64,000 bases of DNA from an uncultured Fidelibacterota bacterium (GTDB taxonomy: Bacteria; Fidelibacterota; Marinisomatia; Marinisomatales; Marinisomataceae), in the NCBI GenBank assembly GCA_902599655.1, contig CACKGC010000002.1, forward strand, positions 1-64,000. Reading direction: 5' to 3'. Below the pieces are notes generated by a model. It did no database searches, was not told the origin of the DNA, and saw nothing but the letters and a program-made list of their open reading frames with translations. Every line of letters starts with the position of its first letter. The stretch's first letter is position 1. Below, piece after piece: positions 15,710 to 22,882 of the stretch. A program made the translations under genes and the position numbers.

Positions 15710-15810
15710 TTAATATTTCATTTGTTATTCTAGCTACTAAATTTTAAAATTACCGTGCAAAAAATAAGTAAATATGACATTTTTGCATAAAAAATAGTTA
15801 AAATGCTAAT

Positions 15811-15826
15811 TGGCACATTTTTTGCA
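15811..15826 (+). promoter_or_regulatory. Putative sigma-54 (-24/-12) promoter upstream of groES
   Basis: TGGCAC-ATTTT-TTGCA with 10 nt between GG and GC; predicted start near 15837, about 31 nt upstream of the groES ATG. Confidence 0.6.
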
Positions 15827-15867
15827 TTGATAACTATAGATTATTTAACAAAAAAAAGGATGAAACA

Positions 15868-16158
15868 ATGTCTTTAAAAATTAAACCGCTCGAAGATAGA
15901 GTAGTTGTAGAAGCAATGGCTGCTGATGAAACAACAGCTAGTGGAATTATACTTCCTGATACTGCTCAAGAAAAACCTCAACAAGGTACTGTAGTTGTGG
16001 TTGGTCCAGGAAAAAATAATGAAGATGGTACTACAAGTAAAATGACTGTTAAGACAGGCGATGTAGTATTATATGGTAAATATTCAGGTACAGAAATCAC
16101 CTATGAAGGCAAAGACTTGCTTATCATGAGAGAGAGTGATATTCTGGCAATTTTATAA
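15868..16158 (+). CDS. groES: Co-chaperonin GroES
   Basis: [44 protein letters not shown]. Confidence 0.98.
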
Positions 16159-16168
16159 GGAGGATTAA

Positions 16169-17812
<1,644 letters not shown>

Positions 17813-17845
17813 TTGATTTTTCTGAAAAAAGTGAAAATAAAATAC

Positions 17846-17873
17846 AAAAAACCCTCTATTTTGAGGGTTTTTT
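17846..17873 (+). terminator. Rho-independent terminator after groEL
   Basis: AAAAACCCTC-TATTTT-GAGGGTTTTTT hairpin followed by T-run. Confidence 0.88.
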
Positions 17874-17890
17874 GTTTGTAAAATAGTATT

Positions 17891-20818: not shown

Positions 20819-22882
20819 ATGCATATTTCAAAATTAGAAATTTTTGGTTTTAAGTCTTTTGCAAAAAAAGAAACTGTTCTATTCAATTCTGGAATTACAG
20901 GAATAGTAGGCCCTAATGGTTGCGGTAAAACAAATATTGTAGATGCAATCAGATGGGTTTTAGGTGAGCAAAAGACTAAAAGGTTAAGAAGTTCAAAAAT
21001 GGAAGACGTGATTTTTAATGGCGCTTCCAATGTAAAGCCTTTAGGTCTATGTGAGGTTTATTTAACAATTGAAAATAATAAAGGATTGTTACCTGTTGAG
21101 TATTCAGAAGTTGAAATTGGAAGAAGATTATATAGATCTGGTGAAAGCGAATATTTTATAAATAGAAACAATTGTAGATTGAAAGATATTTCCAATCTTT
21201 TTGTTGATACAGGATTAACCTCAGATGCATACTCTGTAATTGAATTAAATATGATAGAACAAATATTGTCTGATAAAGATGATAGTAGAAGGCAAATGTT
21301 TGAAGAAGCTGCTGGTGTAAATAAGTACAAAGCTAAAAGAAGATCTGCTATGAAAAAGTTCGATTTAAATTCAAGAGATCTTGAGAGAATTGATGATATA
21401 ATTGTTGAGATTGAAATACAAGTAAAGGCATTAGATTTACAATTAAAAAGGTTTAAAAGGCATGAGAAGCTAACAAATGAATTAAAAGAATTAGAATTAG
21501 ATTTAGCTTCAGCGAGGATTAGTGATTTAAATAATATAATTAGTCCTTTAGAAGAAATGTTAAAAAAGAAGAATAATCTTTTGCAAAAAAATACTTCGAA
21601 AAAAGAGATTGAAACCGTCGAATTTGATAATGCAAGAGATAAATATTTAAATGAGAAAGAGTTGCTTTCAAAAATGAAAGCAAAGGTTGATAAGCTCACA
21701 GAAAAGCTACTTTCAGAAATTCAAGAAAAGAACCAAGAATCATCCAAAGGTGTTGGATTACTGGAGGATGAGCTTCAAAAGAAGATTGAACAACTTAACC
21801 AGTTTGACACAGATTACATTAAGATTGTTTCTGAATGTAATGAATGCGGAAAAAACATAATTGAAACAGACAAGAAGTATGAAAAGCTTAAGGATAGTAT
21901 TGAAGATTACAGAGACAAAATAGATGAATATAGAAAAGAAAAAGAATTTGATTTTTCAAAAATGGATGCATCAATAAAAAAGATTCAAGATCAAATTAAT
22001 TCAAATAATCTTGAGCTTGAAAACAAAGAAAATGAAGTGAATAAGGCTTTTATTAAGATGGAGTCAATAAGAGCAAAGCTTGATTCAGAAAAATTTAGCA
22101 AAGATGATCTTTTTTATGAAATCAAAGAAGCTGAAATGAAAATTGCAGAATCAAAAATTAAAAAAACTCAAATTGAGCAGAATATTTCTGAAAAATTTGG
22201 AAATGATGTTGTTTTAAGTGATTTGAAAGAATACAACATTTCTGATATGGTTTTTAGAGTAGAAAAAATTAAAAGAAGTATAGATTCTATTGGTCCAATT
22301 AATTGGGCGGTCAAAGATGAGCATGAAGAAAAAACTGAAAGATTGAATAATCTTTTGCAGCAGAGGTCTGATTTGATTGATGCAGAAAATAATTTAAAAG
22401 AAGCTATTAAAAAAATTGATATTGTAGCTGAAGAACAGTTTTTAGATACATATAATCAGGTAAAAGAAAATTTTGAGAAAATGTTTACAGTTTTTTTCAA
22501 TGGAGGTAAGGGTACAATTGAATTATCTGATCGAAATGATCCCTTAAATTCAGATATAAATATTTTTGCTCAGCCTCCTGGAAAAAGAAATAACTCACTT
22601 AAGATGTTATCTGCCGGAGAAAAGTCCTTAACTGCAATTGCATTACTGTTTTCTATTTATCAATACAAGCCAAGCCCATTTTGTATTTTGGATGAAATAG
22701 ATGCACCTCTTGATGATATAAATATTAAAAAGTTTACTGATGTTATAAAAGACTACAGTAAAACTACCCAATTTATTATGGTTACTCATAATAAATTGAC
22801 AATGGAATCAGCAGATTGCATTTATGGTGTAACAGCTGAAAAACAAGGAATTTCAAAACTTATGTCCATTGATTTTTCATAA
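20819..22882 (+). CDS. smc: SMC-family chromosome segregation ATPase, short form lacking a recognisable hinge
   Basis: Canonical SMC N-head (KLEIFGFKSFAKKETVLFNSGITGIVGPNGCGKTNIVDAIRWVLGEQ), C-head signature LSAGEKSLTAIALLF and Walker B FCILDEIDAPLDD, but only 687 aa; coiled-coil residues about 170-490. Confidence 0.92.
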   Translation: MHISKLEIFGFKSFAKKETVLFNSGITGIVGPNGCGKTNIVDAIRWVLGEQKTKRLRSSKMEDVIFNGASNVKPLGLCEVYLTIENNKGLLPVEYSEVEIGRRLYRSGESEYFINRNNCRLKDISNLFVDTGLTSDAYSVIELNMIEQILSDKDDSRRQMFEEAAGVNKYKAKRRSAMKKFDLNSRDLERIDDIIVEIEIQVKALDLQLKRFKRHEKLTNELKELELDLASARISDLNNIISPLEEMLKKKNNLLQKNTSKKEIETVEFDNARDKYLNEKELLSKMKAKVDKLTEKLLSEIQEKNQESSKGVGLLEDELQKKIEQLNQFDTDYIKIVSECNECGKNIIETDKKYEKLKDSIEDYRDKIDEYRKEKEFDFSKMDASIKKIQDQINSNNLELENKENEVNKAFIKMESIRAKLDSEKFSKDDLFYEIKEAEMKIAESKIKKTQIEQNISEKFGNDVVLSDLKEYNISDMVFRVEKIKRSIDSIGPINWAVKDEHEEKTERLNNLLQQRSDLIDAENNLKEAIKKIDIVAEEQFLDTYNQVKENFEKMFTVFFNGGKGTIELSDRNDPLNSDINIFAQPPGKRNNSLKMLSAGEKSLTAIALLFSIYQYKPSPFCILDEIDAPLDDINIKKFTDVIKDYSKTTQFIMVTHNKLTMESADCIYGVTAEKQGISKLMSIDFS

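What the first reader, a model, noticed from the sequence alone, without database searches (positions are those of the whole stretch)
15811..15837. Exact sigma-54 (-24/-12) promoter motif in front of groESL
TGGCAC-N5-TTGCA matches the RpoN consensus with correct 10-nt GG/GC spacing. It lies in the 158-nt dut-groES gap, with a predicted start about 31 nt from the ATG. From base composition alone I roughly expect far fewer than one such match in 64 kb. groESL is usually under sigma-32 or HrcA/CIRCE; I see no CIRCE here. Sigma-54 control of a groESL copy is known (NifA-dependent groESL in Bradyrhizobium) but is uncommon for what looks like a main chaperonin operon.
Basis: partly seen in the sequence, partly recalled or inferred. 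Interest (0 to 1): 0.62.

Follow-up and report, generated by a model that had tools for sequence, protein, structure and literature searches.

The report
Sigma-54 heat-shock promoter of groESL
In a small-genome marine bacterium (probably SAR406/Marinimicrobia) the main chaperonin genes carry a genuine, conserved sigma-54 promoter with its own activator-binding site, part of a small heat-shock regulon (groESL, dnaK, hsp20, lon) that appears to be run by sigma-54 and one dedicated activator instead of the usual heat-shock regulators.

Summary
The motif is real: TGGCACATTTTTTGCA (15811-15826) is the only exact TGGCAC-N5-TTGCW in the window and in the 0.7 Mb genome, which encodes a complete RpoN and exactly one sigma-54 activator (EBP; AAA+ plus Fis-type HTH, no sensor domain). 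The site is conserved 54-60 nt before groES in 12 genomes forming one clade of the genus. A dyad, ATGACATTTTTGCAT (15774-15788), lies upstream at a fixed distance (50 bp in ten genomes, 61 bp in two: one helical turn more). The same arrangement precedes dnaK, hsp20 and lon; across the phylum the combined pattern peaks at 39 and 60 bp and leads into dnaK, lon, hsp20, clpB and groES. The EBP orthologue is order-wide. HrcA is absent from all 24 genus genomes, while HrcA-bearing families of the order keep CIRCE at groES. Best reading: sigma-54 plus one dedicated EBP is the heat-shock circuit, and groESL joined it in this lineage. A housekeeping-type promoter (15722-15750) probably gives basal expression. 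Sigma-54 control of chaperones was already predicted for Bacteroidota and Planctomycetota, so this is a new variant of a known kind. No expression data exist here.

The parts
15811..15826 (+). Sigma-54 -24/-12 promoter TGGCAC-ATTTT-TTGCA; predicted +1 at about 15837
   Evidence: exact unique match; conserved in 12 genus genomes
15774..15788 (.). Putative enhancer (UAS) dyad for the EBP, ATGACATTTTTGCAT (genus form ATGCCA-N5-GCAT)
   Evidence: conserved in all 12 aligned genomes with fixed 50/61 bp geometry; in G000 ATGNCA-N5-GCAT has 3 matches, the 2 intergenic ones upstream of lon and groES
15722..15750 (+). Putative housekeeping (sigma-70 type) promoter TTGTTA-N17-TAAAAT
   Evidence: scan hit 9/12; a similar block precedes groES in genus members without the sigma-54 site
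15837..15867 (+). Predicted 5' leader of the sigma-54 transcript with ribosome-binding region AAAAGGATG (15854-15862); no stable fold
15868..16158 (+). groES (Cpn10, 96 aa)
   Evidence: PF00166 2.5e-35
16169..17812 (+). groEL (Cpn60, 547 aa)
   Evidence: PF00118 1.4e-76
17844..17875 (+). Terminator-like hairpin after groEL, ACAAAAAACCCTC...GAGGGTTTTTTGT; near-palindromic, so it can serve the + transcript although the scan listed it on the - strand
   Evidence: and sequence

Best explanation
The motif is a working sigma-54 promoter (P2) of the only groESL operon found, downstream of a housekeeping-type promoter (P1) that supplies basal chaperonin. RNA polymerase-sigma-54 binds -24/-12 and waits closed. 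The only sigma-54 activator found in the genome, a receiverless AAA+/Fis-HTH protein encoded between uvrB and lptE, binds the dyad at 15774-15788, loops over and opens the promoter by ATP hydrolysis. The same pair drives dnaK, hsp20 and lon (clpB in other families), so sigma-54 acts here as the heat-shock sigma factor. The dnaK arm is order- to phylum-wide; groESL joined in a subclade of a genus that lacks HrcA/CIRCE. Shown by sequence: the elements, their conservation and geometry, the regulon, the gene content. Inferred: that this EBP binds this dyad, that the trigger is heat or unfolded protein, and that the EBP, having no sensor domain, is held off by a partner protein (perhaps a chaperone) or limited in amount.
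For: Unique exact motif. Complete RpoN with AID, CBD, DBD and RpoN box ARRTVAKYR. One PF00158 EBP in G000 with AAA+ and HTH_8 domains and no receiver. Site 54-60 nt before the ATG in 12 genus genomes, one group on the GroEL tree with modest support. Dyad-to-promoter length 50 bp in ten genomes and 61 in two, although the ATG distance drifts from 54 to 60; hsp20 39, lon 69. Near-complete relative G019: the best true upstream sites are groES, lon, hsp20 and dnaK. Exact TGGCAY-N5-TTGCW matches in the genus that lie upstream of genes fall almost only at dnaK, hsp20 and groES. Phylum search: 50 of 150 listed hits have length 39, second peak at 60-61; downstream genes dnaK, lon, hsp20, clpB, groES. 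Dyads plus -24/-12 before dnaK in most families of the order examined. EBP orthologue in all order families searched, full length in 27 of the 30 genomes. HrcA absent in 24/24 genus genomes; CIRCE at groES in HrcA-bearing families.
Against: No transcript or binding data. The EBP's GAFTGA loop reads GAYTDA in the genus; Y for F is known to work (PMC6615313), the D was not checked. Outside the genus most dnaK sites have TTGT instead of TTGC at -12. The G000 assembly (81.5% complete) lacks dnaK and no hsp20 was found in it, so much of the shared regulon is shown in relatives; within G000 only groES and lon carry it. The phylum length statistic uses a uniform null and a truncated list of related genomes. 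About nine genus members have no site at groES.
Confidence: 0.87

Rival explanations
1. The sigma-54 promoter is real but belongs to a nutrient, nitrogen or envelope programme (EBP next to lptE, rpoN next to lptB), not a heat-shock response.
For: EBP-lptE and lptB-rpoN neighbourhoods; no sensor domain tells the signal.
Against: Every recurrent upstream target is a chaperone or protease gene: dnaK, groES, hsp20, lon, clpB; no nitrogen or envelope target recurs among exact sites.
Confidence: 0.1
2. Chance or leftover similarity: the -24/-12 look-alike is inert and groESL is driven only by the sigma-70-type promoter at 15722-15750.
For: P1 is conserved across the genus including members without the sigma-54 site; relaxed matches are common.
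Against: Conservation of both elements with helically phased spacing, co-occurrence at other chaperone genes, rpoN and EBP retained in a very small genome.
Confidence: 0.03
3. The TGGCAY...TTGC blocks are an unusual sigma-70-family (sigma-32 or ECF) promoter.
For: An A/T-rich -10-like stretch follows some sites, e.g. hsp20 TTGCAACTATAATA; an ECF-type sigma is present.
Against: The GG-to-GC spacing is the sigma-54 one and the gap from TTGGCA to TATAAT at hsp20 is about 13 bp, too short for sigma-70; fixed upstream dyads are typical of EBPs; no sigma-32-like protein among the two sigma-70-family hits of G000.
Confidence: 0.03

Closest known systems
Predicted sigma-54 promoters of chaperone genes in Bacteroidota and Planctomycetota (PMC12316311)
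   Same: Same target set (GroES/EL, DnaK, IbpA-type Hsp20, GrpE, Lon) under predicted sigma-54 promoters; that paper states that grpE and groES of Bacteroides thetaiotaomicron are sigma-54 dependent.
   Different: That study does not mention this phylum. Here a cognate EBP and a phased enhancer dyad are proposed, in a genome with one EBP and no HrcA.
NifA/RpoN-controlled groESL of Bradyrhizobium (from general knowledge)
   Same: Sigma-54 promoter on a groESL operon.
   Different: There it is one of several copies, tied to nitrogen fixation; here it is the only groESL found, tied to heat-shock genes.
Myxococcus xanthus HsfA-lonD (from general knowledge)
   Same: A sigma-54 EBP controlling a Lon protease in heat shock.
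   Different: HsfA is a response regulator with a receiver domain; this EBP has none and appears to control chaperones too.
E. coli PspF/phage-shock system (from general knowledge)
   Same: Receiverless EBP with AAA+ and Fis-type HTH only, a stress regulon, enhancer sites.
   Different: Different targets; no PspA-type partner was looked for here.
Chlamydia hrcA-grpE-dnaK tandem sigma-66/sigma-54 promoters (PMC8762339)
   Same: Tandem housekeeping plus sigma-54 promoters on a chaperone operon.
   Different: Chlamydia keeps HrcA/CIRCE; this genus has no HrcA.

Membership tests
Sigma-54-dependent promoter | TGGCAY-N5-TTGCW with correct GG/GC spacing | tested here: met
Sigma-54-dependent promoter | RpoN with AID, CBD, DBD and RpoN box in the genome | tested here: met
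Sigma-54-dependent promoter | Cognate AAA+ EBP able to engage sigma-54 (GAFTGA loop, HTH) | tested here: inconclusive
   one EBP with PF00158 and HTH_8; loop is GAYTDA
Sigma-54-dependent promoter | Upstream enhancer with helical phasing | tested here: met
   that this EBP binds it is inferred
Sigma-54-dependent promoter | Transcription start about 12 nt after the -12 GC, dependent on RpoN | not testable with these tools
   needs TSS mapping
HrcA/CIRCE regulation | HrcA repressor gene | tested here: not met
   0 of 24 genus genomes
HrcA/CIRCE regulation | TTAGCACTC-N9-GAGTGCTAA at groES or dnaK | tested here: not met
   not in the window's dut-groES gap nor at dnaK in the genus; 17-18 of 18 positions at groES in HrcA-bearing families f10, f11, f14
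Sigma-32 (RpoH) regulon | rpoH gene | tested here: inconclusive
   G000 has two sigma-70-family hits, one RpoD-like and one ECF-like by inspection; assembly 81.5% complete
PspF-type receiverless EBP | AAA+ plus Fis-type HTH, no N-terminal regulatory domain | tested here: met
PspF-type receiverless EBP | PspA-like negative regulator and psp targets | not tested
   not searched

The most novel reading that the evidence does not exclude
Probability: 0.65. Interest if true: 0.78.

Novelty: new variant of a known kind. Interest (0 to 1): 0.68.

Why it matters
Heat shock is usually run by sigma-32, HrcA/CIRCE, CtsR or similar. Here the evidence points to sigma-54, which needs an ATP-driven activator and gives tight off/on control, as the heat-shock sigma factor of an abundant, mostly uncultured ocean phylum. 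The tiny genome keeps a single activator, so the whole sigma-54 regulon can be read off, and the absence of HrcA/CIRCE together with the gain of sigma-54 at groESL is a clear case of regulatory replacement. It also assigns a likely function to an orthologous EBP found across the order beside lptE.

Tried and rejected
Relaxed motif counts (two mismatches) show no clear enrichment in the window. The named-genome scan with the EBP was swamped by a generic peptide pattern; it returned receiver-containing paralogues from many phyla and gave neither the organism's name nor the orthologue; the Bacteroidota loci from it held no groES beside the EBP. The TGGCATAGATTTAGCA hit upstream of lon was rejected as the promoter because it overlaps the lon dyad. 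Other intergenic matches in G019 are mostly early coding sequence or low scoring. CIRCE upstream of dnaK was looked for and not found in any family examined. An RNA thermometer in the leader: no stable fold (z 0.64). No paper in the library holds both Marinimicrobia and RpoN.

Full report
THE OBSERVATION. It is the only exact TGGCAC-N5-TTGCW in the window and in the genome. Expected numbers under a first-order Markov model are 0.034 in the window and 0.007 in the intergenic DNA of the genome. Two-mismatch matches are not clearly enriched, so the case rests on what follows.

THE MACHINERY. The genome (706 kb held, 81.5% complete) has one rpoN with activator-interacting, core-binding and DNA-binding domains and a perfect RpoN box ARRTVAKYR. 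It has exactly one sigma-54 interaction domain protein: 400 aa, AAA+ domain from residue 12, Fis-type HTH at the C-terminus, no receiver or other sensor domain, between uvrB and lptE. Its GAFTGA loop reads GAYTDA; relatives outside the genus mostly have GAFTGA, GAYTGA, GSFTGA or GSYTGA. Tyrosine and serine variants are reported as functional (PMC6615313). A full-length orthologue was found in 27 of the 30 genomes searched (76-98% identity in the genus, 57-64% in other families), clearly separated from receiver-type paralogues; in most of those inspected LptE is next downstream.

CONSERVATION AT groES. Of the genus genomes with a readable groES upstream region, 12 have TGGCAY-N5-TTGCW at 54-60 nt from the ATG; about nine have none. 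On a GroEL tree the 12 form one group, with modest support, so a single gain is consistent but not proven. Alignment of the 12 shows a second conserved element, ATGACATTTTTGCAT or ATGCCATTTTTGCAT (window 15774-15788). From the dyad to the -12 element the length is 50 bp in ten genomes and 61 bp in two, i.e. one helical turn more, while the distance to the ATG drifts between 54 and 60. Members with and without the site share a TTTGTTATT...TAAAATT-like block (window 15722-15750), most simply a basal housekeeping promoter.

THE REGULON. Exact TGGCAY-N5-TTGCW matches across 24 genus genomes lie inside genes or, when upstream of genes, almost always before dnaK, hsp20 or groES, 50-60 nt from the ATG. 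In the near-complete relative G019 (1.02 Mb), the best true upstream sites are groES, lon, hsp20 and dnaK. The dyad accompanies them: in G000, ATGNCA-N5-GCAT has only three matches in 692 kb; the two intergenic ones lie upstream of lon and groES. Dyad-to-promoter lengths are 39 (hsp20), 50 or 61 (groES) and 69 (lon), close to steps of one helical turn. The genus dnaK promoters carry tandem dyads such as TGTGCCATATAGGCACA and TTGTCATATATGACA.

BREADTH. A combined dyad-plus-promoter pattern was run over 245 genomes of the phylum: 148 have a match, and the reversed-pattern control is rarer. Of 150 listed hits, 50 have a total length of exactly 39, and 23 are 60-61; against a flat expectation over 31 lengths this is about 2e-36, though genomes are related and the list is truncated. 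Genes downstream of the fetched examples are dnaK, lon, hsp20, clpB and groES, with some unrelated chance hits of other lengths. In most families of the order examined dnaK has a -24/-12-like site 52-73 nt before the ATG and no CIRCE; outside the genus the -12 element is usually TTGT.

WHAT IS ABSENT. HrcA is missing from all 24 genus genomes and from five of five sampled genomes of family f7, but present in nearly all other families. In HrcA-bearing families f10, f11 and f14 groES has CIRCE with 17-18 of 18 positions. The two sigma-70-family proteins of G000 look like RpoD and an ECF factor. The simplest history is an ancient sigma-54 arm on dnaK, HrcA/CIRCE on groESL, HrcA loss in the streamlined family, and later recruitment of groESL to sigma-54 in one clade.

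ORGANISM. The exact SAR406-97 probe target (probe recalled from memory, not found in the library) is in the 16S gene of same-genus G019.

COMPARISON WITH THE LITERATURE. A 2025 PSSM study reports enrichment of predicted sigma-54 promoters at GroEL, GroES, IbpA, GrpE, DnaJ, DnaK and ATP-dependent protease genes in Bacteroidota and Planctomycetota (PMC12316311). It does not mention this phylum; an EBP or enhancer for these genes was not seen in the passages read. Chlamydia has tandem sigma-66/sigma-54 promoters on hrcA-grpE-dnaK but keeps HrcA (PMC8762339). No held paper mentions both Marinimicrobia and RpoN. So the kind is known in outline; the phased enhancer, the proposed dedicated activator, the phylum-wide range and the replacement of HrcA are new as far as these searches show.

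LIMITS. No expression or binding data. The trigger (heat) is inferred from the targets. How an EBP without a sensor domain is switched is unknown; titration by a chaperone or by a PspA-like partner is a guess. G000 lacks dnaK in its assembly, so part of its own regulon is inferred from close relatives.

Noticed in passing
window 20819-22882: SMC-like protein of only 687 aa, much shorter than the usual ~1150-1200 aa; the same length in relative G019, so a genus trait rather than a frameshift.
   Followed up: partly
G029, G041, G048, G054, G059 (family f7): HrcA is also absent in all five sampled genomes; weak TGGTAC-N5-TTG-like sites lie 130-153 nt before groES: possibly a second, separate replacement.
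   Followed up: partly
dnaK upstream regions among L322-L340 (order): Outside the genus the -12 element of dnaK is usually TTGT instead of TTGC; may reflect weaker promoters or altered RpoN preference.
   Followed up: no
G000:C8 (L002) and relatives: The EBP loop motif GAFTGA has become GAYTDA in the genus members examined.
   Followed up: no
L001, L002: rpoN sits next to lptB and the EBP next to lptE, a linkage of the sigma-54 system to LPS-transport genes.
   Followed up: no
G000:C1 10511-12853 (-): lon: the sigma-54-like site AGGCATAGTTTTTGCA lies only 27 nt before the called start, which would give a nearly leaderless mRNA.
   Followed up: no
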